Positions 2,181 through 50,617 of a stretch of DNA of 64,000 nt are shown piece by piece; the stretch's first letter is position 1; each line of letters starts with the position of its first letter. The DNA is taken from the NCBI GenBank assembly GCA_937925855.1, contig CALAMO010000006.1, positions 114,026 to 178,025 on the forward strand, given 5' to 3'. Below the pieces are notes generated by a model that was not told where the DNA came from, made no database searches, and was given only the letters and a program-made list of their open reading frames with translations. The DNA comes from an uncultured Thiotrichaceae bacterium. Its GTDB lineage: Bacteria; Pseudomonadota; Gammaproteobacteria; Thiotrichales; Thiotrichaceae. Both the position numbers and the translations under genes were made by a program.

Positions 2181-3047
2181 ATGGCAACCAGCACAGATAA
2201 ACAACATTACTTCGTACCTGATACGACCATTTGGCCGTTTCTGGCGTCTGTCGGGCTCACCACCCTGTTGATGGGCTTTATCAACATCCTGAATGATGGG
2301 GGCGGTAAGTTCCTCATGCTCGCAGGAGCAGTGGTTCTCTTTTTCACTTTCTGGCGTTGGTTTGGCGAGGTTATCCACGAAAGTGAAGGTCGGATCTACA
2401 GCAGCTGGGAAGATAAATCATTCCGACTTGGCATGAGCTGGTTTATTTTTTCCGAGGTAATGTTTTTTGCCGCCTTTTTCGGCGCGCTGTGGTATGCCAG
2501 AGTGCTTTCGGTGCCTTGGCTTGGCGGTGCAGGTGAAGAATTTGAAACGCATAAGTGGCTGTGGAATTCTTATCAGGCGGTTTGGCCGACTAATGGCCCG
2601 GCTAATGTCGGCGGCGAATTTAACGTCATTGGTGCCTGGGGCCTACCGTTGGTTAACACGCTGCTGCTGCTTGCCTCAGGTGTTACCGTGACCTGGGCAC
2701 ACCACGCGCTGAAGCACAATAACCGTAAACACCTGATTTGGGGTCTTGCCGCAACGGTTGCACTCGGCTTCATATTCCTATTCTGTCAGGCGCTTGAATA
2801 TTCACACGCCTATCATGGCAACCTGACGTTAGGCTCCGGCATTTATGGCTCAACTTTCTTTATGCTCACAGGCTTTCACGGCATGCATGTGACTTTGGGC
2901 GCGATTATCCTGCTCATCGTTTTAATTCGCAGCATACGCGGCCACTTTACTCCTAAAAACCACTTTGCTTTCGAGGCAGCAGCCTGGTATTGGCACTTTG
3001 TTGATGTAGTTTGGTTAGGCTTGTTTATTTTCGTATATATTTTATAA
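2181..3047 (+). CDS. ctaE: Cytochrome c oxidase subunit III
   Basis: TFWRWFGEVIHESEG, GFHGMHVTLGAI, AAWYWHFVDVVWLGLFIFVYIL. Confidence 0.96.
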   Translation: MATSTDKQHYFVPDTTIWPFLASVGLTTLLMGFINILNDGGGKFLMLAGAVVLFFTFWRWFGEVIHESEGRIYSSWEDKSFRLGMSWFIFSEVMFFAAFFGALWYARVLSVPWLGGAGEEFETHKWLWNSYQAVWPTNGPANVGGEFNVIGAWGLPLVNTLLLLASGVTVTWAHHALKHNNRKHLIWGLAATVALGFIFLFCQALEYSHAYHGNLTLGSGIYGSTFFMLTGFHGMHVTLGAIILLIVLIRSIRGHFTPKNHFAFEAAAWYWHFVDVVWLGLFIFVYIL

Positions 3048-3090
3048 AGCACTGATCAAAAAAGCTTATAAGCATGTAATCAAAATTAAG

Positions 3091-36893: not shown

Positions 36894-37134
36894 GGCCAGC
36901 CAGCCCTGTCAGCCAAATGACGTTGAACATCTGCTGTAAGCCTTTACGCGTAACAAACAACATGCAGGTGAGAAACAGCCCGATAAGCCACTGACCAACA
37001 GCAGGCAGGTAGCCAATAGGATCAGTCTGCAAATAGTCCGCCAGGGTCAGCGATAGATAAATCATGCAAACTGCTGCCAATAGCCAGCAGGCCAGTCGGC
37101 ATAGCCAGAGAATGAAAGATGCCTGCTTTTTCAT
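36877..37134 (-). CDS. Small multi-TM protein, 85 aa
   Basis: Hydrophobic ORF overlapping rep by 4 bp (ATGA). Confidence 0.7.
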   Translation of the reverse strand: MKKQASFILWLCRLACWLLAAVCMIYLSLTLADYLQTDPIGYLPAVGQWLIGLFLTCMLFVTRKGLQQMFNVIWLTGLAGLVAIF

Positions 37135-38936
37135 GCAACAGCCTCCATGCTTTCCAGTTGAATGGCTGCTCGTTCACGTCGCATTTCCAGAGCATCCGCC
37201 TCTTCTTGCGTACAGTTATTTACAGAACTCCAAGGAAAAGCGGAAAAGCCATCAGCCTGTAAAAAATGCGCGTCTGTAGCAGGGAGCGTGAAGGTGGCAA
37301 GTACTGATGCCAGCACATCGTGTGTGGTATGTGATTTAGTGTTCGCAATAGTGCTGTTGATGGTTTGCTCTGACTGGTCAGCCTTACTCTGAATAGTCCA
37401 TGTCTTCAGCCGCGTTTCTATGGCTGGCATATTATTCAGGGCGATACCCTTAACCCGCTCGATAAATTCACCATAGCGGTTTTGACAGACTTCGCCGGTT
37501 TCGGTGTCGGTATGTTCAACGGTATACACTCTGAGAGGCTGCGCTTTCCGGTCAATATTAGCGCCCCCTTGCAAGGTCATATACAAAGCCCAATCGCCCG
37601 CATCAGCAGCCTGTCGGGCTTCCTCCAGCAAACCATCAGGGGCAGACTCAATGCGTCGCAGTTCACGCCACACACCCACAGGAGCGCCACCAATTTGCTG
37701 AAATTGACGGATACCCCAACAGGAAGCCCATGCACGCACACGCTGCGCTGAGTCACTGGCAGCTTCACCGGTTTCTTCGTCGCTATCTATACCAAAACCA
37801 TCAATATTTTTAGCGACATATTTGGCGATATAACCGGTAGCACTGCCTTTGCTCTGGTCGATGGCCACGACTTCAAAACGATGCTTGTCCGCACCGGCTT
37901 CATCGCCATCTTCCTGCATGGCATAGTGTTGCAGGGTTGCTGTGACCGCCTCACTGTGTCCCTGATCCATAAACAACAACAGATGCCAGTGCGGTGTGCC
38001 GTCGTGATGGGGTTCAGCAATACGGAAGCCATAAACGTTCAGGCCATCGCGCTTCAGCTTCGCTCTGATGCATGCCCACAGGTCACACAAGTAGCGCTGT
38101 GCATCGCGTGGTGTGCTGTCATGGTACTTATCATTGAGACCATTGCCTGATACCCGGTGATACTTTGATGGGCATGTCAGGGTATAGAACATGGCGACAT
38201 GATTTTGTTGCTTGGCATAATCTTCAAAACCCCGCATACGCACCATGAGTTCAGCACGTCGTATGACAGGGTTAGCGGTAGAGCCTTTGAGTACTGCCAA
38301 CAGGTCACAGGTGTCACCTTCATCGGATACCGCTTCATAACTTTGCAGTATTTCCATAGAGCGCTGATGACGCTGCTGTATGCGCTGTAGCAAAGCAGTG
38401 GAGCAATAAGGCTGAAAAGCAGTCCGGATATGGCCCAGCTGGATAGACAGCAATTCCTGTTCACGGTCTTGCTTTCTGCGTAATGCCTTCTCCCACCAGA
38501 CCGCGCATTTTACTCTTGCCAGGATACTGGCTTCAGTGTCACCAGCAGGCAGGGAGAGGCCAGCAGACAACAGGTACGCTGCTGACTTCTCTTTACTGGT
38601 GACGTTGCAGATTTTGGCTAAGCGTTCAGCCTTAGTTCTCAGAGTATCGTCTGAGTGGGTCAGCAGGGTTTTGTCGTTGGTATAATCTTGTACGGATAGC
38701 AGGTACAGATTAGCGGCCTGTCGCCCTTTCTGGATATATTGATAGCTGTAGGTGTTTCTTACACTAGCAGCGATACTGACAGGTAGTTTATGCAGTGTGT
38801 CTTCGATGAAGAATACATCTGCTGGGTGATGGCTCATAGCCGCTACTGGGGGCGCTTGCTTTAATGCTGGCGTTGCATTTACTTTGTCGTCAGACGCGAC
38901 AGTGCTAGAATCAGACATTGCTGATACTCCTTTCAT
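37131..38936 (-). CDS. Replication initiation protein, phage GPA-like HUH endonuclease
   Basis: GTPHWHLLLF (HUH motif) and GYIAKYVAKNIDGFG (YxxxY tyrosine motif as in P2 A/phiX174 A-type proteins). Confidence 0.88.
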   Translation of the reverse strand: MKGVSAMSDSSTVASDDKVNATPALKQAPPVAAMSHHPADVFFIEDTLHKLPVSIAASVRNTYSYQYIQKGRQAANLYLLSVQDYTNDKTLLTHSDDTLRTKAERLAKICNVTSKEKSAAYLLSAGLSLPAGDTEASILARVKCAVWWEKALRRKQDREQELLSIQLGHIRTAFQPYCSTALLQRIQQRHQRSMEILQSYEAVSDEGDTCDLLAVLKGSTANPVIRRAELMVRMRGFEDYAKQQNHVAMFYTLTCPSKYHRVSGNGLNDKYHDSTPRDAQRYLCDLWACIRAKLKRDGLNVYGFRIAEPHHDGTPHWHLLLFMDQGHSEAVTATLQHYAMQEDGDEAGADKHRFEVVAIDQSKGSATGYIAKYVAKNIDGFGIDSDEETGEAASDSAQRVRAWASCWGIRQFQQIGGAPVGVWRELRRIESAPDGLLEEARQAADAGDWALYMTLQGGANIDRKAQPLRVYTVEHTDTETGEVCQNRYGEFIERVKGIALNNMPAIETRLKTWTIQSKADQSEQTINSTIANTKSHTTHDVLASVLATFTLPATDAHFLQADGFSAFPWSSVNNCTQEEADALEMRRERAAIQLESMEAVA

Positions 38937-39033
38937 TAGCGTGATGGTAGTTCAGTAATTTGGCGATGACGTTGGCGCGTCTTTGCCTTAAAGCCCTTTC
39001 AGTTAGCGCTGATGGGGCTTTGTTCTTTATGAC

Positions 39034-39198
39034 CTATGATGCATTCATTTCTGCTGCTTTCTCCTTCTTCAGAATCTGATTGATTTCGCCGTTAATGCTG
39101 CGTCCTTGTGCCTGGGCGCGATCAGTTAGCCATTGTCTTATCTCTTCCGGCATCCGCACCGGGTAGGCATAGCGTTTTTTCTTTTTGGTATCTGTCAT
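39034..39198 (-). CDS. Arc-like ribbon-helix-helix DNA-binding protein, 54 aa
   Basis: MTDTKKKKRYAYPVRMPEEIRQWLTDRAQAQGRSINGEINQILKKEKAAEMNAS*; below the ORF-track cutoff. Confidence 0.75.
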   Translation of the reverse strand: MTDTKKKKRYAYPVRMPEEIRQWLTDRAQAQGRSINGEINQILKKEKAAEMNAS

Positions 39199-39207
39199 GG
39201 TTAAACT

Positions 39208-39283
39208 CTATCCATTTGTATCCTTGAGATAATAAGCAATCAATACAGAGGATACAATACCTATCCATTTATATCGTTGATAC
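39208..39283. promoter_or_regulatory. Intergenic control region with repeated operator-like sequence between divergent Arc-like genes
   Basis: CTATCCATTTGTATCCTTGAGAT (39208) and CTATCCATTTATATCGTTGATAC (39261), plus GAGGATACAATAC between them. Confidence 0.6.
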
Positions 39284-39312
39284 AAAATGATTCATTCTGG
39301 ACAATGAAGACA

Positions 39313-39546
39313 ATGAGCAAAGACGATAATCGCATCAACCCTTACCCCATACGTCTGCCGCAATCCTTGCGGGAGCGTCTGGAGGCTGTTGCTAAAGCAA
39401 ATGGTCGTTCATTGAATGCCGAAATGCTTTTGCGACTGGAAGCTTCGCTAGATGGGCAGGATGGCTTTGTGGTCAACGATGACCTGGAAGCCCGTATGCG
39501 CGAAATCGCGAAAGAAGAAGCCCAAAAAATAATAAGGGACAAGTGA
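39313..39546 (+). CDS. Arc-like ribbon-helix-helix DNA-binding protein (start chosen at MSKDDN)
   Basis: NPYPIRLPQSLRERLEAVAKANGRSLNAEMLLRLEASL. Confidence 0.85.
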   Translation: MSKDDNRINPYPIRLPQSLRERLEAVAKANGRSLNAEMLLRLEASLDGQDGFVVNDDLEARMREIAKEEAQKIIRDK

Positions 39547-39591
39547 TGTATAGAGAGACGGCCTTTTCTTTAATCACCGAACCGGGCATTT

Positions 39592-42333
39592 ATGGCGAAC
39601 AATTCAAACCCCAGTACTCAGAACCAGTCCTCTGTCTATCAGCATCAGGAAGAAGCTGTCCAACGCCCTGATGTTGGCGTACAGGCTGAATTTCAAGATC
39701 GAAAGCCTCCAAAGACCTACCGCTATGATTCTTCGTTAGCACCTGAGCTGTGCTGGGATGAAAATGCTGAACGTGAGTATACGGAATGGCTGCTAAACCT
39801 TGTCAGTGAAGCTGCCAGTAAGGGAGAAGATGAAGTCTTTGCTGAGCCACAAGTCTGGCAAGGTAACGGTGATAAATTCTTCGGCATTCAGGATTGTGTT
39901 GAACGTTTGCGCACGCTGACACAACCCTTCCTGAACTGGACGGGCAAAGCTGAACGCCCCCAAATCAAAATCCCTACCATCCCGCTATTTGTGCATGAAC
40001 GCCATTCCACACAGGGCATTCTTAATGCATTGGAAAGTTACCGCCAATTAGGTACGAATCTGGATTTATTCGGTGATCCTCAGCTGGACGTATCTGAAAA
40101 GCTGGATGCTTATGAGCATACCGGCCCCTGGACGAATCGCATGGTGTTGGGTGATTCGCTGCATGTCATGAACTCTCTGCTGGAATATGAAGGCATGGGG
40201 GGACAAGTGCAGATGATCTATATTGATCCGCCGTATGGGGTGAAGTTCGGGTCTAACTTTCAGCCGTTTGTGCGGAAGCGGGATGTGAAGCACGGTAAAG
40301 ATGATGAGATGATCCGGGAACCGGAGATGGTGAAAGCTTACCGGGATACCTGGGAGCTGGGGTTACATTCTTATCTGACTTATCTTCGTGATCGGCTGTT
40401 GTTAGCGCGTGAACTATTAAATGAATCTGGCTCTATCTTCGTACAAATTTCAGATGAAAATCTTCACCATGTTCGAGAGCTAATGGACGAAGTATTGGGT
40501 CATGCAAATTTCATATCACTGATTAGCTTTTCAACAACAAGTGGACACTCTGCCAAGCATATTTCAAATACAACAGACTATATACTCTACTACGCAAAAG
40601 ATATTTCAAAACTGAAGTATAATCAGGTATTTGGAGAAAAGAGTTTATCCAATGCAAAAGGGGGAAAGTATCGCAACTTGGAATTGCCTGATGGCAATTC
40701 TAGACCTTTAACCAAGGAAGAGTTGGCTGGAATAAAAAAACTTCCTGATGGCTCACGAGTTTACACACTTGGAGACTTAACGTCCAAAGGATGGTCAGAA
40801 ATCGGTTCAGCACCATTTGACTATCAAGATAAACAGTTTCAATGTCCAGGTAACAGCCATTGGAAGACCACCCAGCAAGGTTTAAATAGATTGGCTGAGA
40901 AAGGTCGTTTAGTCCCCACTGGCAAAAGGATAATGTTCAAAAGATATTTAAAGGACTTTCCTGCATTCCCAATAAACAATCAATGGTCAGACACTAGCAG
41001 TGGTTTTAGCCTTTCTGATCCCAAAATTTATGCCGTGCAAACTCGTCCATTAGTGATACAAAGATGCATATTGATGGCAACTGATCCAGGCGACTTAGTA
41101 CTCGACCCAACATGTGGAAGCGGTACAACTGCTTATGTAGCAGAACAATGGGGCCGTCGTTGGATAACTGCTGATACTTCCCGCGTCCCTCTAGCATTAG
41201 CCCGTCAACGCTTACTGACAGCAACCTATCCATGGTATGAACTAGAGCATCCAGACAGTGGCCCTACTGGTGGATTTGTTTATCAACGCAAACAGAACCG
41301 CAAAGGCGAAGAAATCGGCGGCAAAGTCCCCCGTATTACCCTAAAATCTATCGCCAACGATGAAGAACCAGAAACAATCACACTGGTTGACAAGCCAGAG
41401 TTAAACAAAAAAGTCACCCGCGTCTGTGGCCCCTTCACCGTAGAAGCCACCGTCCAAGCCGCAAACTCCCTACTGGATGACCAGAACGCCATAGACGAAT
41501 CCGTACAGGTACAAGGCGATGCCGTCGCTTACCTGGACAGAATGCTGGAAGTCCTGCGCAAGTCCGAACGTCTGAGCCTACCCGGTAACAAGCAATTAAA
41601 ACTCGATAACGTCCGCTCCCTTTCACCGGAAGACTCCGAATACCTGCATGCAGAAGCAACAGAGCAGAATGGTTCTGATAAGCGCATTGCCATCATGTTT
41701 GGCCCGGAGAATGGAGCGATCAGCTCAGATCATGTCTACGACGCTGCACGCGATGCGCACTACATGCGCTACGATGCGCTGTACTTCTTCGGTTTCGCTA
41801 TCCAGGCCAAAGCACGCGAAATGATTGCAGATCACAAGAAGCTACGCATACCCTGTACTTTCGTGTCAGTCACTCCAGATGTAGTCATGTCTGACCTGCT
41901 GAAAACCAGCAAGGCATCAGAAATCTTCTCCATCACGGGCTTACCGGATATTGGCTTCTGGCAAACCAGCGAGAAAGCCGCCAATGGCAACCCGTTGTAT
42001 CAGGTTAAACTGCTGGGACTGGATATATTCACTCCGCACAACATGGAGACCGACCACATTGAAGCAGAGAATCTTCCCTGCTGGATGCTGGACACCGATT
42101 ACAACGGTATGAGCTTCATCGCCAGACAGGTTTTCTTCCCAAAGACCAAAGCCTGGGACAATCTGCAAAAATCACTCAAAGGCAAGTTTGATGAATCAGT
42201 CTGGGATCATCTGGCAGGTATCGAGAGTGAACCTTTCCTGATAGGTGATAAGCAGCGTATAGCGGTCAAAGTCATTGATGAGCGTGGTAATGAACTGATG
42301 GTCGTGCGCGATGCAGCAGAGGCCACACGATGA
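39592..42333 (+). CDS. Type III restriction-modification methyltransferase (Mod), 913 aa
   Basis: MIYIDPPYGVKFGSNFQPF (DPPY), DPTCGSGTTAYVAEQWGRRWITAD (AdoMet-binding motif). Confidence 0.93.
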   Translation: MANNSNPSTQNQSSVYQHQEEAVQRPDVGVQAEFQDRKPPKTYRYDSSLAPELCWDENAEREYTEWLLNLVSEAASKGEDEVFAEPQVWQGNGDKFFGIQDCVERLRTLTQPFLNWTGKAERPQIKIPTIPLFVHERHSTQGILNALESYRQLGTNLDLFGDPQLDVSEKLDAYEHTGPWTNRMVLGDSLHVMNSLLEYEGMGGQVQMIYIDPPYGVKFGSNFQPFVRKRDVKHGKDDEMIREPEMVKAYRDTWELGLHSYLTYLRDRLLLARELLNESGSIFVQISDENLHHVRELMDEVLGHANFISLISFSTTSGHSAKHISNTTDYILYYAKDISKLKYNQVFGEKSLSNAKGGKYRNLELPDGNSRPLTKEELAGIKKLPDGSRVYTLGDLTSKGWSEIGSAPFDYQDKQFQCPGNSHWKTTQQGLNRLAEKGRLVPTGKRIMFKRYLKDFPAFPINNQWSDTSSGFSLSDPKIYAVQTRPLVIQRCILMATDPGDLVLDPTCGSGTTAYVAEQWGRRWITADTSRVPLALARQRLLTATYPWYELEHPDSGPTGGFVYQRKQNRKGEEIGGKVPRITLKSIANDEEPETITLVDKPELNKKVTRVCGPFTVEATVQAANSLLDDQNAIDESVQVQGDAVAYLDRMLEVLRKSERLSLPGNKQLKLDNVRSLSPEDSEYLHAEATEQNGSDKRIAIMFGPENGAISSDHVYDAARDAHYMRYDALYFFGFAIQAKAREMIADHKKLRIPCTFVSVTPDVVMSDLLKTSKASEIFSITGLPDIGFWQTSEKAANGNPLYQVKLLGLDIFTPHNMETDHIEAENLPCWMLDTDYNGMSFIARQVFFPKTKAWDNLQKSLKGKFDESVWDHLAGIESEPFLIGDKQRIAVKVIDERGNELMVVRDAAEATR

Positions 42334-45300
42334 CCACAGAAGCCCCTGCTGATCCTATTGAGGCTATCGACAACCCTATTATCAATTCTCCCTTTCTGGA
42401 GCCACAAGGCTACTGGCAGGTAGAGAAAGGCCAGCAACCCAAAGTCATCACTGGTAGACGCGATGCGCATTACTACTACCGAGTTCCGGATAGTGCGAAA
42501 CGGGGGCGTAAGAGTAAGAAGCAACTGGACTTAGGGGGCGAGCTGGGAGCCGGTCAGAAAGAAGACCTCCCTATCGTCAACTGGCTGCGCAAGCAGGTTA
42601 AAACATGGCGTGAAGGCACTTTAACCCAAAAGCCTTATGATGGGGCATCGTCTGTTACCAAAGAACTGTTGCGACTCTGGACACGTACAGAAGGTCGTAA
42701 ACAGCGCTTATTCTTCGCACAAGTTGAGTCAGCAGAAACTATCATTTTTCTGGCAGAAGCTAACCCGCTGTATAAGCGCGGTATGCCAGCGATACCGATT
42801 GATTTACCCGGAGAAAAAGCACAGGCAGAGGGTTACAAGGCATTTACCCGCTATGCCTGCAAGATGGCGACTGGTACCGGAAAGACTACCGTCATGGGGA
42901 TGTTGGCTGCATGGTCTATTTTAAACCGGGTAGCTGCACCAACAGATGACCGCTTTTCCGATACTATCCTGATCGTCTGTCCTAATGTCACTATCCGGGA
43001 ACGACTGAAAGAACTTGACCCCGCTACCGGTGATTTTAGCTTGTACCGCACGCGCCAATTAGTGCCACCACACCGCATGGAAGAGTTACGTCGTGGCGAA
43101 GTCATTATTGCTAACTGGCATCGTCTGGCGAAGAAAGAAACCAGCTCTGTTAATGGCGACTCTGCCAAAGTCGTAAAAACCGGCGAAGCAACTGAGATAG
43201 TCAAAAACGCTGGCAAGAAGAATGAATCTGTCGAAGTAAAATACTTTGAGTCTGACCGGGCATGGTTCAAGCGTATTCGCCAGGAGCTGGGCAATGGAAA
43301 AGGCAGAAGTGAACATTGGCTGGTGTTCAACGATGAGGCCCACCATGCCTATCGTCGGGGTGATGCGGAAGACAAAGGTGATGTATCACTGGATGAAACT
43401 GCGACACAAGATCGTTCCACACTGGCCAAAAAACTGGATAAAGAAGCCACTATCTGGGTTGAAGGCTTAGACCGAATCAACAAGCTAGCCAATGGCAGGA
43501 AGAAAGGTATTAACCTTTGTATCGACCTGTCAGCAACACCTTTTTATATTCAGGGTTCCGGTAATGAAGTCGGGAAACCTTACCCTTGGATAGTCACTGA
43601 CTTTGGCTTATTGGATGCGATTGAGTCCGGACTGGTAAAAATCCCTCAGCTGCCTACTAGGGATATTGCGGGTAAAGAAGAGTCTAACTTCTTCAACATC
43701 TGGCGATGGGTAGAAGAACAAGCCTATCAGGAAGGCTTAGCCAGTCAGTCAAGAGACTTAACGCCCCCAGTCGTCATGCGCTATGCATCACGCCCTATTC
43801 TGTTACAGGCAACCGACTGGCATGAACGTTTCCAGCAATGGATGGAGACGGAAAAACAGGAACTACACCCGGTACCACCAGTATTCATCATCGTGTGCCG
43901 TGATACCCAGTTAGCTGCTGAGGTTTACAACTGGCTGGCCGAAGGTAAAGGTGAATACGGTGAACCTCCTGAGTTTTTCCGTAATGCTCCCGGCGATGAA
44001 AAAACAGTGCGCGTTGACTCCAAAGTCATGGAAAGCATGGATGAAGGCACTGGTACTGATGAAATCAAACGGCTGCGCTTTATCTTAGATACCGTTGGCC
44101 GTAAGACCTGGGATGGAGGCAAAGTCCCAGAAGAATATGCTGAGATTGTCCGCAAGAACAACGAGAAAGCCGCCAGTGATGACAACGATGGTTCTTTCGT
44201 CCGGATTGATGAGCGCATACCGCCCGGACGTGATATTCGCTGCATTATCTCTGTCGCGATGCTGGCAGAAGGCTGGGACGCCAATACGGTCACACATATC
44301 GTTGGCCTACGTCCATTTGGGTCACAGCTACTCTGTGAACAGGTAGTCGGTCGCGCATTGCGCCGCCGTAGCTACGTGTTGCAAGACGATGACCGTTTTG
44401 CAGCAGAAACCGCCAGAGTCTTTGGTGTGCCCTTTGAATTGATACCGCTAAAAGTTTCCAAGACTGGTCAAACTAAAGAGACAAAAGAACCTACGCATAT
44501 CTTCAGCGTACCGGAGAAAAAGCAGTATCAAATCTCCTTCCCCATCGTGAATGGTTACTTCATGCGGGAGGAGAATAATATCAGCGTCAATTATTCACGT
44601 ATCCAACAAGTCACGATCAATCCGACCGACTTACCCGACTCTGTTGAACTGTCCTCTATGACTGTCCCAGATGGCAAACTGGCTGCCTTTGGCCCTGGAG
44701 AAAAGAAGACCATCACGCTGAATGCATGGCGCGAATTGTATGGCCGTAATCAGATGGTTGCTTTTAAGCTAGCTTGTGATGTTTGTGAACGCTGGGAGCA
44801 GTCACGCGATGATAACGAAGACGAATCTGAAACTCTGTTAAAGCTTCAGGCATTATTCCCAAAGATGATGTTTACCGCAAAGCGCCTGCTGGCAGACAAA
44901 GAAAAACTAATCTGCATCGGTACAGCGAAGCCTTGCGACGTGCTACTTGCCGGTAAGTACCACACCGCTGTCGTTGATTCACTGCACCAGGCCATCAGCT
45001 ACGGGGGCGTAGACAACCATGAAATGCCACGTATACCGAAGGGAGCAGATGGACGCGGGTCTACCGACTTCGTTGACTTCCATACCCATAAACCTACCTA
45101 TCCGGTGACTAAGTGTCATATCAACCTTCTGGTGGCCGATACCAAGACCTGGGAGCAAAGTACCGGCTATGCGCTGGACACTCATCCCGGTGTTATCAAA
45201 TGGGTCAAGAACGAACACCTGAACTTTGATATTCCTTACCGCAAAGCTGGCACGCCATCACGTTATATTCCCGACTTCATCGCTGTGCTGGACACAGGAC

Positions 45301-45491
45301 TGAATCTGATTATCGAGACCAAAGGGCGTTATCTGGACGATGCAGACCGTAAAGCTAAAGCTGCTGACAGATGGGTAAAGGCAGTGAATGCGACTAAGCA
45401 GCATGGAGAATGGGGTTATGTTGTGGTTAAAGAACCTTCGGAATTACCTGTGCAGCTTGATGGGTTGGCTGAGAACAAGTGGGTTATTTAA
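42330..45491 (+). CDS. Type III restriction enzyme Res subunit, helicase plus nuclease
   Basis: KMATGTGKTTVMGML (Walker A), VFNDEAHHAYR (DEAH), EQVVGRALRRRSY (motif VI), PDFIAVLDTGLNLIIETKGR (PD-(D/E)XK); ATGA overlap with mod. Confidence 0.93.
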   Translation: MTTEAPADPIEAIDNPIINSPFLEPQGYWQVEKGQQPKVITGRRDAHYYYRVPDSAKRGRKSKKQLDLGGELGAGQKEDLPIVNWLRKQVKTWREGTLTQKPYDGASSVTKELLRLWTRTEGRKQRLFFAQVESAETIIFLAEANPLYKRGMPAIPIDLPGEKAQAEGYKAFTRYACKMATGTGKTTVMGMLAAWSILNRVAAPTDDRFSDTILIVCPNVTIRERLKELDPATGDFSLYRTRQLVPPHRMEELRRGEVIIANWHRLAKKETSSVNGDSAKVVKTGEATEIVKNAGKKNESVEVKYFESDRAWFKRIRQELGNGKGRSEHWLVFNDEAHHAYRRGDAEDKGDVSLDETATQDRSTLAKKLDKEATIWVEGLDRINKLANGRKKGINLCIDLSATPFYIQGSGNEVGKPYPWIVTDFGLLDAIESGLVKIPQLPTRDIAGKEESNFFNIWRWVEEQAYQEGLASQSRDLTPPVVMRYASRPILLQATDWHERFQQWMETEKQELHPVPPVFIIVCRDTQLAAEVYNWLAEGKGEYGEPPEFFRNAPGDEKTVRVDSKVMESMDEGTGTDEIKRLRFILDTVGRKTWDGGKVPEEYAEIVRKNNEKAASDDNDGSFVRIDERIPPGRDIRCIISVAMLAEGWDANTVTHIVGLRPFGSQLLCEQVVGRALRRRSYVLQDDDRFAAETARVFGVPFELIPLKVSKTGQTKETKEPTHIFSVPEKKQYQISFPIVNGYFMREENNISVNYSRIQQVTINPTDLPDSVELSSMTVPDGKLAAFGPGEKKTITLNAWRELYGRNQMVAFKLACDVCERWEQSRDDNEDESETLLKLQALFPKMMFTAKRLLADKEKLICIGTAKPCDVLLAGKYHTAVVDSLHQAISYGGVDNHEMPRIPKGADGRGSTDFVDFHTHKPTYPVTKCHINLLVADTKTWEQSTGYALDTHPGVIKWVKNEHLNFDIPYRKAGTPSRYIPDFIAVLDTGLNLIIETKGRYLDDADRKAKAADRWVKAVNATKQHGEWGYVVVKEPSELPVQLDGLAENKWVI

Positions 45492-45537
45492 TAAGAAGGC
45501 AGAGTACTCCAGCCAGCAAGCCACAGCACGAAATCAA

Positions 45538-46353
45538 ATGACAGATAGGTATACCCTTTGGGTTGCTGTTTTCAGCCTAGTTATTGCAATTTTCACCTTG
45601 ATAGTAACTATGGCTGCTATCTTTCACGATCAAATTGCACGTCGCTACATTACTGATATAACTGGAGAATGGTCAACTGGCAGGCTTCAGAAAATTGTTT
45701 CAAACGAATTGAAAAGATTTAATTGGGCTGAAGAAGAAAGTGTTTGTGGTGGCGAAGAATGCACCCCAGTACATAGGTTCGTCGGTGAGTACATTCTTCC
45801 TCCTCATGAAGATCAACGCGACTCTATGGCTATTGTGATAGTTACAGACGCAGAATTCTGCGAAACATCCCCATGCCCATCTAAACTAAGTTTTTTTCAG
45901 TTAAAAGATACAGGGTTTGGCTGGCATTTAGCTTCTTCAGAAATAGCATTTACAGAAGCCTACTTGGGTGAGGACTCCACGATTGAGTTCATGCCTATTG
46001 CTCCCAAAAAATCTGGCATGTTCATATATGACTCATACTCCAAACATGGCTATTCACACGATTCGTTAGCTGTCCACACATCAATAGGCGGAAAGTTTAA
46101 AAACATCTTTATACCGTCAGATGTTCATTTCAACAATACAGGGGCTGGAAAAAATACAGCAGTAGATTACACGCACGAACTATTCGAGAAAAAGTATGGT
46201 TACTATGACATTGTTGTGACTGTAAAGGGACATGAGGAGGAAAAGGTTATTGATGGAGAAATTTACTACCGATTTACCGGAAATGGGTATGTCGAATTTA
46301 AACGTACCGGCGTTCTTTTATCCCCAGAGCCTGAAGAAGACTCGTACCAATAA
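45538..46353 (+). CDS. Hypothetical membrane-anchored protein downstream of res (start chosen at 45538)
   Basis: MTDRYTLWVAVFSLVIAIFTLIVTMAAIFHDQIARR N-terminal TM then a ~230-aa soluble domain; the ORF-track start at 45388 overlaps res. Confidence 0.7.
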   Translation: MTDRYTLWVAVFSLVIAIFTLIVTMAAIFHDQIARRYITDITGEWSTGRLQKIVSNELKRFNWAEEESVCGGEECTPVHRFVGEYILPPHEDQRDSMAIVIVTDAEFCETSPCPSKLSFFQLKDTGFGWHLASSEIAFTEAYLGEDSTIEFMPIAPKKSGMFIYDSYSKHGYSHDSLAVHTSIGGKFKNIFIPSDVHFNNTGAGKNTAVDYTHELFEKKYGYYDIVVTVKGHEEEKVIDGEIYYRFTGNGYVEFKRTGVLLSPEPEEDSYQ

Positions 46354-46421
46354 AACTGCTGGTTATCCCTCAAAACTATGACATAATTTTTACCTCTCCA
46401 GGACATTAAGGCCATCGTGCT

Positions 46422-46625
46422 ATGAACGAAGCCACAGAACACGCCATAAACGATATTAAAGAAGCAAACAACTGGCAGCATGTCTTCTCCGATCCGCTAA
46501 CGCCAGACAATGTAGAAGATTATATCCAGACTTTGATTATGGAACAGGCTGATTGTTGGTCAAGCGTCTACACCTTGAAAGATGTTGAGTGGGAGATTGT
46601 GAAGTCTAACGTCTACACGCATTGA
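46422..46625 (+). CDS. Small acidic hypothetical protein, 67 aa
   Basis: MNEATEHAINDIKEANNWQHVFSDPLTPDNVEDYIQTLIMEQADCWSSVYTLKDVEWEIVKSNVYTH*. Confidence 0.5.
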   Translation: MNEATEHAINDIKEANNWQHVFSDPLTPDNVEDYIQTLIMEQADCWSSVYTLKDVEWEIVKSNVYTH

Positions 46626-46630
46626 CCGTT

Positions 46631-46770
46631 CGCCACTGGGCAAGGGTTGCATGCACTCTGTCCTGCAACCATGCACCCAAGGGTAAATATACCGATGGTC
46701 GTACCTAGCGACCTACAGCCGCGCCCGCTGGTTGCGGATCAAGGCAGAGGAAATAACAGTGCGCTATCGC
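46631..46770 (+). repeat. Structured repeat element, copy 1
   Basis: TCGCCACTGGGCAAGGGTTGCATGCACTCTGTCCTGCAACCATGCACCCAAG...GGTCG-tacctag-CGACC...CCGCGCCCGCTGGTTGCGGATCA; matches copy 2. Confidence 0.85.
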
Positions 46771-46999
46771 CGTTTAAATTGCTCTGAACCTACCAAGAAA
46801 TCCATGCTCTGCTACGAAGAACCTATCATTAAACCTTACCGTCTCCGTACAATTTAAAGCGCTGTTGACGAGTCAAGAATACGCAGATTTCTACACCCTG
46901 AAAAAAGTACTGAAAAAGACCTTTTTCTAACCTCTCTAGGTCTAAAAAAATGCACTATAATTTATCAGGTAAAGACACCAATAATTGGGGAAAATTTCT

Positions 47000-47143
47000 A
47001 TGTTTGGAAGAGTAAAACAACCTCGCCGCACTGCTCGTGCAAATCTTCGTCGTAATCCATACAACTGCAAGTCAGCCAGCCCATCAAAGATCAGAAAAAT
47101 AATGCGCAGTATTGGCGATGATATGGCAAGCAACACCCGTTAA
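47000..47143 (+). CDS. Small basic protein, 47 aa
   Basis: MFGRVKQPRRTARANLRRNPYNCKSASPSKIRKIMRSIGDDMASNTR*, preceded by ggggaaa; below the ORF-track cutoff. Confidence 0.5.
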   Translation: MFGRVKQPRRTARANLRRNPYNCKSASPSKIRKIMRSIGDDMASNTR

Positions 47144-47276
47144 AATTATATTTTGCTTTACAGGACTGGCAAGCAGAATTATTTATAATTTACATATTGC
47201 TTGTCAGTAGCAGCTCAACCTTACTGCAAGCACTTCTGCCAAAATTCTTAAAATCTTACACACTTCGATGATCAGC

Positions 47277-47420
47277 TCGCCGCTGGGCAAGGGTTGCATG
47301 CACTTTGTTCCTGCAACCATGCACCCAAGTATATGCAAGCGATAGGTAGCCGTATGCTCCACCTACCGCCGCGCCCGTTGGTTGCGGATCAGTATTGCAG
47401 TAACAAGGGTTCGCTACGCC
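47277..47420 (+). repeat. Structured repeat element, copy 2
   Basis: TCGCCGCTGGGCAAGGGTTGCATGCACTTTGTTCCTGCAACCATGCACCCAAG...GGTAG-ccgtatgctccac-CTACC...CCGCGCCCGTTGGTTGCGGATCA. Confidence 0.85.
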
Positions 47421-47611
47421 ATATGAATCGCTATAAGCTTAGTTCTCCTGGCACACCCTTCGTATTAAACAACTTGCCAACTTCTTAATCTCGAAACGAT
47501 TCATAAGCCCTTGACGGAATAATATTCATGCTTACTGCATCTGATATTTATTTGCCAACTCAATCGCCCGAAACTCATACAGGCCAAGGGTTTCAAGCAA
47601 TCTAATAGTGG

Positions 47612-48109
47612 TCATTTAGGTATGGATTGGTTAATAAGGGTGCCAGATAGTAGTTTACTTACTTTTGAGTACTCCAATGCTTCTGGTATCAGGTCTCCAT
47701 CTCTGTCCTTACTAACAGTCCCAACACGTGCTTTGATTAATCGCCCCCGTAGCATCCGCATAGGTATTCTATCTAGTCTGCCTGGCATATGGCTTGTTAC
47801 CCTGACATAATCGCGTATGAAGCTGCTGCGCTTAGTTACAGAAAACTTACCCTTTTTACCTGCTTGACCAATCAACCTCGTTGCTAAATAAAATCGTTCT
47901 AATACTTTCCCTTTGTACTGACCTTCTGCTATGGCAAACCGTACAATAATGCGTGGTTTACCAAACATATTTGCGGTGGCATGACTCTGATAAACAACGC
48001 TATAGATACCGGGAACAATCAGAGGAAGTTCTGCTCCTGTAATTCCAAATGACCCACAGGCTTCATCAATATGATGTACTGTGGCACTCATATTACAAGC
48101 CACCTTCAT
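47612..48109 (-). CDS. Hypothetical island protein, 165 aa
   Basis: ORF in a same-strand block with an HTH gene and integrase. Confidence 0.55.
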   Translation of the reverse strand: MKVACNMSATVHHIDEACGSFGITGAELPLIVPGIYSVVYQSHATANMFGKPRIIVRFAIAEGQYKGKVLERFYLATRLIGQAGKKGKFSVTKRSSFIRDYVRVTSHMPGRLDRIPMRMLRGRLIKARVGTVSKDRDGDLIPEALEYSKVSKLLSGTLINQSIPK

Positions 48110-48122
48110 TTTGATTATTCAT

Positions 48123-48413
48123 TTACATGACTCCCTTCACTGATGCTTCAGGTATCCCATTATTTTTTAGATACCAAGCATACTCTGCGTCCCACACACT
48201 GACACGCTCACCATACTTTGTCGGCTTGCTAATCCGGCCATCTTTAACATATTTAGAAAATGTTGACTCACCGATGCCAAGAAAGGCAGAGAATTGTTTC
48301 CGGCGAACTTTGCCAGTATTAGGGAAGGTATCAACTAACAGCTTACGACGCGCCATAACTTCCGCACCTGGAAGTTTGCGAGTGCGTTTTTTAGCAATTT
48401 TTGTATCAGTCAT
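48123..48413 (-). CDS. HTH DNA-binding/excisionase-like protein
   Basis: VRRKQFSAFLGIGESTFSKYVKDGRISKPTKYGERVSVWDAEYAWYLKNN resembles AlpA/excisionase-type HTH. Confidence 0.65.
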   Translation of the reverse strand: MTDTKIAKKRTRKLPGAEVMARRKLLVDTFPNTGKVRRKQFSAFLGIGESTFSKYVKDGRISKPTKYGERVSVWDAEYAWYLKNNGIPEASVKGVM

Positions 48414-48522
48414 TATCTAATAAACTCCATCTTCATCTAAGATGAAATCAATTAAATCATTGATAAATAAATCATAAAAACCGCCTGCACTGTAAATCAT
48501 GTTGCCTTGCAGTGCAGGCCGA

Positions 48523-49272
48523 CTAACTTTTGGGAGGAGGATTATCCGATAAGTATTGATAAACTTTTCGGAGCATATCTTTACCAAGCCCTCTATGCTT
48601 ACTGTCTCCACCAGATACTTGGAAATTTATCTCTTGGTCACAGTAGTCTATGAAGTGTGAAACCCCTCGTCGCTCAACAGAGACGCTTCGCCCCGTCCTG
48701 GTCAAAATCTTGGTCTCGCTTATTTGAAATTTTTTGAAATATGGCGTGCAGACCTGGATAGCCTCTGCAAACTGGCGTTCAGCCTTCACCCTTGCGGCAA
48801 ATGCCTTTTTCTTACTTCTACCTTTCTCTGCTGCTTCATTAATGGTGATTATCTTGTCTGCAATTCGATGCTCTACATCATGTGTTTGGTTTTCCTGCTC
48901 CCATACGGCAAAAGCATGACCGACCTTATCTTCATACTGTGAAAATGAATTAAGCAGCTCTTGAATCTTTTGTTCATAAGCCTGTACCGTCACACGCAGA
49001 AGATACCTGTCTGAACAGTACTGACACATCATTCTCCTTAGCCAGTACTCTTTATCAATCTCATCGCCATCTCCATCTGACAACAGATCAGCAAATGCAG
49101 TAATTATTTTTACAAAGGCTGGATTACCGACTCCATCTCCATCTATAAACTTATCGACCACTGCATCAAACGTTTCACCTAAGTTAGCGATCAACTCATC
49201 TTCCAGACTCTGATCAGGATTATTCAGACACTCTTTGATAAAGCTTGTTATTTCATGCTTATCCATCAGCAC
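48523..49272 (-). CDS. Hypothetical island protein, 249 aa
   Basis: ORF with CQYC motif and coiled-coil-like middle region. Confidence 0.55.
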   Translation of the reverse strand: MLMDKHEITSFIKECLNNPDQSLEDELIANLGETFDAVVDKFIDGDGVGNPAFVKIITAFADLLSDGDGDEIDKEYWLRRMMCQYCSDRYLLRVTVQAYEQKIQELLNSFSQYEDKVGHAFAVWEQENQTHDVEHRIADKIITINEAAEKGRSKKKAFAARVKAERQFAEAIQVCTPYFKKFQISETKILTRTGRSVSVERRGVSHFIDYCDQEINFQVSGGDSKHRGLGKDMLRKVYQYLSDNPPPKS

Positions 49273-49366
49273 ACCTTCACATGTGCCTTCACGAATAAAT
49301 CACCAGGGAAACCAGTGTGAAGGGTTCTGGCGTTCGGTTGGCCGACCTATCCCTGATGTTGTTCTG

Positions 49367-50617
49367 CTATGCCTGTTTTTGATGTATTGGTATGATTTGC
49401 GCCCCTTCTCTTAGGCTATCCAGATAGTCAGCCCACGCTTGTAGCATCTCACGTCGCTCTTGCAAATATTTGGCTCTATTGTAAGCTGCCCTCACCTGAT
49501 TGGCTTCCTTGTGAAATAGCGCAGCCTCAATGACATCAGACCGATAACCCATTTCATTTAGCAATGTTGAGGCTGTACTTCTGAAACCATGAGAGGTCAT
49601 CATGTCACCAAAACCAAGGCTTTTAATTGCATTGTTCATGGTGTTCTCAGACATAGCCCCAGACTGTGAGCGACTTGAATAGAACACATATTTAAAATGG
49701 CCGGTAAGGGGGCATATATCTTCCAAAATTTCCAGCGCTTGCCGTGAAAGTGGAACAGTTTGTGCGTCCTCTATCTGGTCAGCATTTTTTAAAGTCTGCT
49801 TAAGTTTAATTTTTGCAGCTGGCACTTCCCACAGCCCTTCTTCCATATTGATTTCACTCCATTCCACGAATCGTATATTCTGGGGCCTGGTCATCACCAG
49901 TGGAGCAAATTTGAGTGCCTGTGTTGTTGTGTATTCCCCACGGTAACGCTCGATAGAGCGTAGCAACTCCCCAAGCTTTGCAGGATCAGTAATTGCAGCA
50001 TAATGCTTAGAAGGTCGTTTTTTGATAGCGCCTTTCAAATCAGCTGTAGGATCACGTTGGCAATAGCCATTCTGAACACCATAGCGAAAAATCTGGCTCA
50101 TCATCTGTCGTGCTTTACGAGTAGTATCTCCTACGCGTTTTTCCATACGTCGAAGAATTTGCAACACTTCGGGTGGTTCCAGCTCATCAATCGGACGCCT
50201 ACCTAACCACGGTAAGATGTCTTTTCTTAAAATGCGCTCTACAGAATTGCTATGTGATTGGCTCCAATTAGGCGACTCATAAGCACGCCACTCTTCTGAT
50301 ACCGATTGAAAAGTATTTTTATGGTGGCGAATCGAATCTAACTTTTCACGATCTCGTGCAACTTTGGGATCAATACCTTCGGCAAGCCATGACCTCGCTT
50401 GTTGATGCAGTCTTCGTGCATCCGCTAAACCAATATCAGGATAAACACCCAAAGCTAGAGTTTGCTGCTTTTTGTCATATCGGTATGAATACCGCCAATA
50501 CTTACCAGACTTGTTTACTAAAAGAAACAGACCTCCACCATCACTCTTCTTCTCCGGCCTACCGTCTGATTTTGGCTTCGCATTCTTAATTGCAGTATCA
50601 GTCAGTTTTCCAGCCAT
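49367..50617 (-). CDS. P4-type tyrosine integrase (DUF4102 N-terminus)
   Basis: MAGKLTDTAIKNAKPKSDGRPEKKSDGGGLFLLV, MTRPQNIRFVEW, SHGFRSTASTLLNE, LFHKEANQVRAAYNR. Confidence 0.95.
   Translation of the reverse strand: MAGKLTDTAIKNAKPKSDGRPEKKSDGGGLFLLVNKSGKYWRYSYRYDKKQQTLALGVYPDIGLADARRLHQQARSWLAEGIDPKVARDREKLDSIRHHKNTFQSVSEEWRAYESPNWSQSHSNSVERILRKDILPWLGRRPIDELEPPEVLQILRRMEKRVGDTTRKARQMMSQIFRYGVQNGYCQRDPTADLKGAIKKRPSKHYAAITDPAKLGELLRSIERYRGEYTTTQALKFAPLVMTRPQNIRFVEWSEINMEEGLWEVPAAKIKLKQTLKNADQIEDAQTVPLSRQALEILEDICPLTGHFKYVFYSSRSQSGAMSENTMNNAIKSLGFGDMMTSHGFRSTASTLLNEMGYRSDVIEAALFHKEANQVRAAYNRAKYLQERREMLQAWADYLDSLREGAQIIPIHQKQA

What the first reader, a model, noticed from the sequence alone, without database searches (positions are those of the whole stretch)
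46631..47420. Two copies of a ~140-bp structured element with a compensatory base-pair change, each next to a short ORF
Seen directly: 46631-46770 and 47277-47420 share TCGCC(A/G)CTGGGCAAGGGTTGCATGCACT(C/T)TGT(T)CCTGCAACCATGCACCCAAG and GCCGCGCCCG(C/T)TGGTTGCGGATCA. Between these blocks each copy has a different hairpin: GGTCG-tacctag-CGACC in copy 1 and GGTAG-ccgtatgctccac-CTACC in copy 2. The C-G pair becomes A-T while pairing is kept, although loops and flanks diverge. The first block can also fold (GGTTGCA...TGCAACC). Copy 1 starts 6 bp after the stop of a 67-aa ORF; copy 2 follows a 47-aa basic ORF; each is followed by a potential short ORF (GTG at 46760, VRYRRLNCSEPTKKSMLCYEEPIIKPYRLRTI; ATG at 47423, MNRYKLSSPGTPFVLNNLPTS). 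Inference: selection on RNA or single-stranded DNA structure, such as an island-encoded ncRNA, a cis-regulator of the short ORFs, or a recombination/replication substrate for the HUH Rep. I do not recognise a named family.
Basis: partly seen in the sequence, partly recalled or inferred. Interest (0 to 1): 0.75.

Follow-up and report, generated by a model that had tools for sequence, protein, structure and literature searches.

The report
Folded single-strand DNA origin-like element
Two stretches in this bacterial island belong to a widespread, apparently unnamed folded DNA element shared by filamentous viruses, rolling-circle plasmids and mobile islands, and it most likely marks where their single-stranded DNA starts to be copied back into double-stranded DNA.

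Summary
The two copies are real, but each element is longer than described (about 46627-46872 and 47274-47518). The quoted compensatory hairpin does not hold, because the two hairpins are not at homologous positions. Selection on a single-strand fold is nevertheless well supported. Homologues occur at four other loci of this genome (6 copies), in 13 of 64 genomes of the order, in complete 2.2-2.3-kb Thiothrix rolling-circle plasmids, in small MobV/RepL/RepA plasmids of enterobacteria and pseudomonads, and in 7 inoviruses. They share an invariant TCGCC loop on a covarying stem (0 of 5000 shuffles), a stem H1 of free sequence (24 versions in 25 copies) and usually a 3' stem ending in TTGAC. The element lies opposite to the Rep or Zot coding strand in 19 of 19 replicons. 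The viral/displaced strand folds better after composition correction (23 of 29 copies, p about 1e-4). All 4 GPA-type Rep genes of this genome have a copy within 13 kb. Best explanation: a complementary-strand (single-strand) origin, sso/ssi-like, of replicons that pass through ssDNA. Function and priming enzyme were not tested. No Rfam family matches. Verdict: real; a new sequence family of a known functional kind, confidence about 0.6.

The parts
46627..46872 (+). Copy W1 of the element (TCGCC-strand orientation); the proposed functional ssDNA is the - strand
   Evidence: CM hit 103.1 bits over 46627-46737; 3' end from TTGACG shared with homologues
47274..47518 (+). Copy W2 of the element
   Evidence: CM hit 113.7 bits over 47274-47387; 3' end CCCTTGACGG
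46626..46638 (+). W1 H_A: TCGCC loop (46630-46634) with a weak stem CCGT/ACTG
   Evidence: 3 of the first 4 positions pair
47273..47285 (+). W2 H_A: TCGCC loop (47277-47281) with stem CAGC/GCTG
   Evidence: 4 of 4 positions pair, different bases from other copies
46645..46670 (+). W1 H1: GGTTGCA-12 nt-TGCAACC
47292..47318 (+). W2 H1: GGTTGCA-13 nt-TGCAACC
46718..46737 (+). W1 core GCCGCGCCCGCTGGTTGCGG (hairpin H2 of the Thiotrichales branch)
47368..47387 (+). W2 core GCCGCGCCCGTTGGTTGCGG (H2)
46757..46867 (+). W1 3' domain H3, closed by CAGTGCGC / GCGCTGTTG
   Evidence: read from sequence
47404..47513 (+). W2 3' domain H3, closed by CAAGGG / CCCTTG
   Evidence: read from sequence; same closing scheme with other bases in homologues
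37131..38936 (-). P2-type GPA replication initiator (HUH) of the same island, on the strand opposite to the element
   Evidence: PF05840 E 3e-92; phrog_91 'nicking at origin of replication'
49367..50617 (-). Tyrosine integrase of the island, next to tRNA genes
   Evidence: tRNAs

Best explanation
Each copy is a member of a family of about 200-250-nt cis-acting DNA elements that fold when single-stranded. They most likely act as the complementary-strand (lagging-strand) origin, sso/ssi-like, of replicons that pass through single-stranded DNA. When the island is excised, its GPA Rep would nick one strand and displace it. The displaced strand folds at the element into a GGCGA-loop hairpin (complement of TCGCC), stem H1 and stem H3. 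A host priming enzyme recognises this fold and lays down the primer for the second strand. Shown here: the family, the paired stems, its spread over ssDNA replicons, its fixed strand, and the fold bias to the Rep-sense strand. From general knowledge of rolling-circle replication: that the Rep-sense strand is the displaced one. Inferred: the priming itself, the enzyme, excision of the island, and that these two integrated copies are active.
For: Spread over ssDNA replicons: Rep_1 rolling-circle plasmids of 2180 and 2341 bp, a MobV+RepL plasmid, MobV plasmids, 7 inoviruses, GPA or G2P-like islands. Rep-independence: the Reps belong to unrelated families. Fixed strand: opposite to Rep or Zot in 19 of 19 replicons. 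Structure: TCGCC-loop stem 86.7% paired vs 66% +-4.5% with arms exchanged, 0/5000; H1 24 versions in 25 copies, jointly beyond dinucleotide shuffles. Fold bias to the Rep-sense strand in 23 of 29 copies after shuffle correction, p 1.2e-4. All 4 GPA loci of this genome have a copy within 13 kb. An 18-mer of the canonical form is absent from 387 gammaproteobacterial genomes. sso features as defined in PMC5703833 and PMC4595007.
Against: No functional test. Several copies per replicon (W1+W2, three at C12, two in an inovirus, eight partial copies in pP33-1). Two T. caldifontis genomes carry it beside conjugation genes with no GPA hit. Many GPA genes in the order have no detectable copy. No known priming motif is conserved (phiX n'-site AAGCGG; no likeness to the G4 origin by eye). 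The Rep-sense fold bias would also fit an RNA of that sense. Copies C30, C53 and C12a fold better on the other strand before correction. Homologues are related, so p-values are optimistic.
Confidence: 0.6

Rival explanations
1. A single-strand promoter of the Frpo type: the folded entering or displaced strand mimics a double-stranded promoter, so that host RNA polymerase expresses neighbouring genes before second-strand synthesis; priming is secondary or absent.
For: Frpo/ssi are folded, strand-specific and found in plasmid leading regions (PMC11541004). The -35-like TTGAC lies in the H3 stem of most canonical copies. Defence genes sit beside W1 and C7.
Against: No -10 hexamer is conserved at a fixed distance in the sequences read. 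The element often ends at the stop of the upstream gene and faces genes on the other strand, and it fills the gap of mini-plasmids that carry only Rep and two ORFs.
Confidence: 0.13
2. A structured RNA: a small RNA or a 5'/3' UTR regulator carried by mobile elements.
For: Strong stems with covariation; a ProQ/FinO gene sits near the C12, C30 and C53 copies.
Against: No Rfam match; no terminator-like site, and no promoter-like site just upstream, in the window. Flanking genes vary from locus to locus in kind and direction. Better explained by ssDNA because hosts are ssDNA replicons and strand is fixed to Rep.
Confidence: 0.1
3. A site used by the replication initiator or by phage packaging itself: double-strand origin, terminator of rolling-circle replication or packaging signal.
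For: Fixed strand relative to Rep; TTGAC at the base of H3 resembles pC194/phiX-type nick sites (general knowledge); location after zot in inoviruses.
Against: Shared by replicons with unrelated Reps; the TTGAC/H3 half is absent in the T. subterranea plasmid; plasmids are not packaged by inoviruses. Search for nick sites in the mini-plasmids was inconclusive.
Confidence: 0.08
4. A cargo-junction recombination site or a non-autonomous repeat (attC-like, MITE/REP-like) that moves or exchanges defence cassettes.
For: Copies lie at the cargo/integrase-side junction in several islands, some directly after stop codons; C12 has three direct copies with genes between them; T. caldifontis has identical inverted copies.
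Against: No terminal inverted repeats or integron R boxes were seen by eye. A fixed strand relative to Rep in 19 of 19 replicons is not expected of a roaming repeat. It persists in plasmids and inoviruses without cargo.
Confidence: 0.07

Closest known systems
Single-strand origins (sso) of rolling-circle plasmids: ssoA, ssoU, ssoT, ssoW, ssoL (PMC5703833); sso1 of ICEBs1 (PMC4595007)
   Same: Non-coding, 150-250 nt, extensive fold, strand-fixed, independent of Rep type, modular position, found in plasmids and integrated elements.
   Different: Different sequence and architecture; those are from Gram-positive hosts. Activity here is untested.
ssi / Frpo single-strand initiation or promoter sites of conjugative plasmids (PMC11541004)
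   Same: Folded on one DNA strand, found on plasmids, several copies per plasmid possible.
   Different: No clear -35/-10 pair; occurs in non-conjugative mini-plasmids and inoviruses. [quoted passage not shown]
Complementary-strand origin of phage G4 (annotated in NC_001420)
   Same: About 135 nt, several hairpins, in a non-coding gap of a ssDNA phage.
   Different: No TCGCC-loop hairpin or shared motif seen.
Minus-strand origin of M13-type inoviruses (general knowledge)
   Same: Hairpins in a non-coding region of an inovirus, on one strand only.
   Different: Not compared by alignment here; the TCGCC-loop/H1/AGCGT/H3 order is not one I know from M13.

Membership tests
sso / ssi complementary-strand origin | Extensive secondary structure under selection in a non-coding region | tested here: met
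sso / ssi complementary-strand origin | Orientation fixed relative to the leading-strand initiator | tested here: met
   19 of 19 replicons opposite to Rep/Zot; copies are partly related
sso / ssi complementary-strand origin | Independent of the type of Rep; modular position | tested here: met
   GPA, G2P-like, Rep_1, RepL and Rep_trans replicons
sso / ssi complementary-strand origin | Primes second-strand synthesis; reduces ssDNA in one orientation only | not testable with these tools
   needs a bench assay
phiX174-type primosome assembly site | Conserved AAGCGG (n'-site) | tested here: not met
   present in a minority of copies and on either strand
G4-type complementary origin | Sequence likeness to the annotated G4 origin | tested here: not met
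   inspection and folding, no shared motif; BLAST against phages found no G4
Frpo single-strand promoter | -35 and -10 elements made double-stranded by the fold | tested here: inconclusive
   TTGAC in the H3 stem of most canonical copies, no conserved -10
Rfam RNA family | Match to a curated covariance model | tested here: not met
Integron attC site | RYYYAAC ... GTTRRRY boxes at the ends | tested here: not met
   by eye on the ends of the copies; no dedicated attC model was run

The most novel reading that the evidence does not exclude
A previously unnamed class of Gram-negative single-strand origin, defined by a TCGCC/GGCGA pentaloop hairpin plus two free-sequence stems, that has spread between inoviruses, rolling-circle and mobilisable resistance plasmids, and P2-type GPA islands: a portable, Rep-independent second-strand origin.
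Probability: 0.45. Interest if true: 0.72.

Novelty: new variant of a known kind. Interest (0 to 1): 0.6.

Why it matters
The second-strand origins of Gram-negative rolling-circle replicons and of most inoviruses are, as far as I know, poorly defined, whereas in Gram-positive plasmids the sso type limits host range (PMC5703833). A recognisable structured family shared by inoviruses, small plasmids and GPA islands gives a directly testable candidate. It would also explain why the same folded DNA turns up next to defence cargo and resistance genes, and it could serve as a marker for islands and plasmids that pass through ssDNA.

Tried and rejected
Rfam at gathering and at E<=10: nothing. BLAST of the C30 form against phages and plasmids: nothing; the link to other replicons appeared only through the 2180-bp plasmid. 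The core 20-mer pattern in GTDB contigs gave mostly matches without the flanking architecture (Microvirga and others) besides Thiothrix and one dolphin-associated MAG. RNA partner of ProQ/FinO: dropped because most contexts show no such gene. Integron attC: ends do not fit. IS110 bridge RNA: considered because inoviruses L163 and L166 carry an IS110-type transposase beside the element; rejected because most copies have none. Coding conservation: H1 apical loops vary freely in length, not by threes, and stems covary. Double-strand origin: shared by unrelated Reps; search for nick sites in the mini-plasmids inconclusive. The first covariance model alone gave only modest support (2 pairs changed on both sides), so the conclusion rests on the wider set. 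A ProQ-protein search in viral contigs found no relative, nor did the Rep_1 protein. Literature searches for the motif or a named family found nothing; subscription papers are mostly not held.

Full report
Observation. The window carries two direct copies of one element. Their 5' block and core are nearly identical and the rest diverges. Homologues show that each element continues to a conserved TTGACG (W1 about 46627-46872, W2 about 47274-47518), which places the supposed short ORFs inside the element.

Homologues in the order. The same genome holds six more copies at four loci. Three at C12 are interleaved with ProQ/FinO, toxin-antitoxin-like and hypothetical genes. The C30 and C53 copies lie beside a P2-family capsid gene, and the C7 copy lies at the end of another cargo that looks like a type III restriction-modification operon. 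A covariance model from nine copies finds 27 places in 13 of 64 genomes searched, in three genera, including four divergent copies in G014. Named relatives are Thiothrix fructosivorans, T. caldifontis and T. subterranea.

Key context. Two hits fall on complete small plasmids, T. subterranea pTSUKu5_2 (2180 bp) and a 2341-bp plasmid of T. fructosivorans. Each has a Rep_1 rolling-circle Rep, two small ORFs and the element in the gap between them. From there blastn reaches small plasmids of Salmonella, Providencia, Shigella, E. coli, Serratia and Pseudomonas, many with MobV, RepL or RepA genes, and parts of larger plasmids. With the Providencia form, 178 plasmid records match at E<=1e-3, some over short pieces only. 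It also reaches an inovirus with two copies. An exact 18-mer of the canonical form finds eight contigs in IMG/VR, of which six carry a Zot gene of inoviruses; the other two lack the architecture. The same 18-mer is absent from 387 gammaproteobacterial genomes.

Anatomy. Canonical copies read: hairpin H0, then ACGT-[TCGCC]-ACGT (H_A), GGCA, stem H1, NAGCGT, a short linker, then GTCAAGGG-H3-CCCTTGAC. The Thiotrichales branch adds the hairpin-forming core CCGCGCCCGYTGGTTGCGG. The TCGCC loop is invariant while its stem changes: ACGT/ACGT, ATGT/ACAT, GTCT/AGAC, CAGC/GCTG, TTT/AAA. Among 15 distinct arm pairs 86.7% of positions pair, against 66% +-4.5% when arms are exchanged, 0 of 5000 shuffles. 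H1 has 24 versions in 25 copies, and 19 copies together exceed dinucleotide shuffles (Fisher p 2e-17), although W1 and W2 alone do not. Copies within a lineage are related, so these p-values are optimistic.

Strand. In 19 of 19 replicons where a Rep or zot gene lies on the same record, the TCGCC strand is opposite to that gene. From general knowledge, the packaged or displaced strand of inoviruses and of pC194- and phiX/P2-type replicons is the Rep-sense strand; that strand therefore carries the GGCGA version. It folds more stably than the other strand in 21 of 29 copies, and in 23 of 29 after subtracting the bias of dinucleotide-shuffled sequence (Wilcoxon p 1.2e-4).

Link to Rep genes. GPA (PF05840) is found at four places in this genome, and each has a copy within 13 kb; the chance for four of five element loci is about 6e-6. 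In other genomes the distances are 3-6 kb. Many GPA genes of other genomes have no hit, so the element is common but not obligatory.

Mechanism. A folded, strand-fixed, Rep-independent, non-coding element in replicons with ssDNA intermediates matches what defines sso/ssi sites. I therefore favour a complementary-strand origin, at about 0.6. Which enzyme primes is open: the phiX n'-site is not conserved, no likeness to G4 was seen, and TTGAC in the H3 stem hints at RNA polymerase, but no -10 element is conserved. An Frpo-like promoter role is the closest rival.

Limits. No wet test was possible. The 3' domain is variable and its pairing was mostly read by eye. Copies without a nearby Rep (T. 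caldifontis) and several copies per island remain unexplained. The literature held is open-access only, so an older name for this element may exist.

Noticed in passing
L009 8513-9001 and 10321-10794; L011 7548-8039; L012 10242-10565 (G000 C12, C30, C53): ProQ/FinO-domain proteins encoded beside P2-family capsid, terminase and GPA genes in satellite- or prophage-like islands; the Pfam match was tested for the two in L009, the others are alike by eye.
   Followed up: partly
window 47000-47143: A 47-aa basic ORF lies between the two copies; its function is unknown.
   Followed up: no
G000 C12, C30, C53; L014; L015: A further pairing module (AAGGCT, CTATGCTG ... CAGCATAG, AGCCTT) forms the 3' half of these copies and also occurs in G032 without the 5' half.
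   Followed up: partly
L150 about 2990-3060 (T. fructosivorans pTfr21): An H3-like block stands alone, without the H_A/H1 half, next to GTTAGGC.
   Followed up: no
L163 2354-3313, L166 6157-7107: IS110-type transposases (PF01548) sit directly beside the element in two inoviruses; a transposase is annotated likewise in PP511607.
   Followed up: partly
L151 (P. aeruginosa pP33-1): Eight partial copies on one 49.6-kb plasmid, three of them alike.
   Followed up: partly
L018 / L106 (G051): The 3' part of this copy is interrupted by an insertion with an IS4-like transposase reading frame.
   Followed up: no
window 37131-50617: The island combines integrase next to tRNA genes, an AlpA-like regulator, what looks like a type III restriction-modification operon and a GPA Rep; three further GPA loci in the genome also carry the element.
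   Followed up: partly
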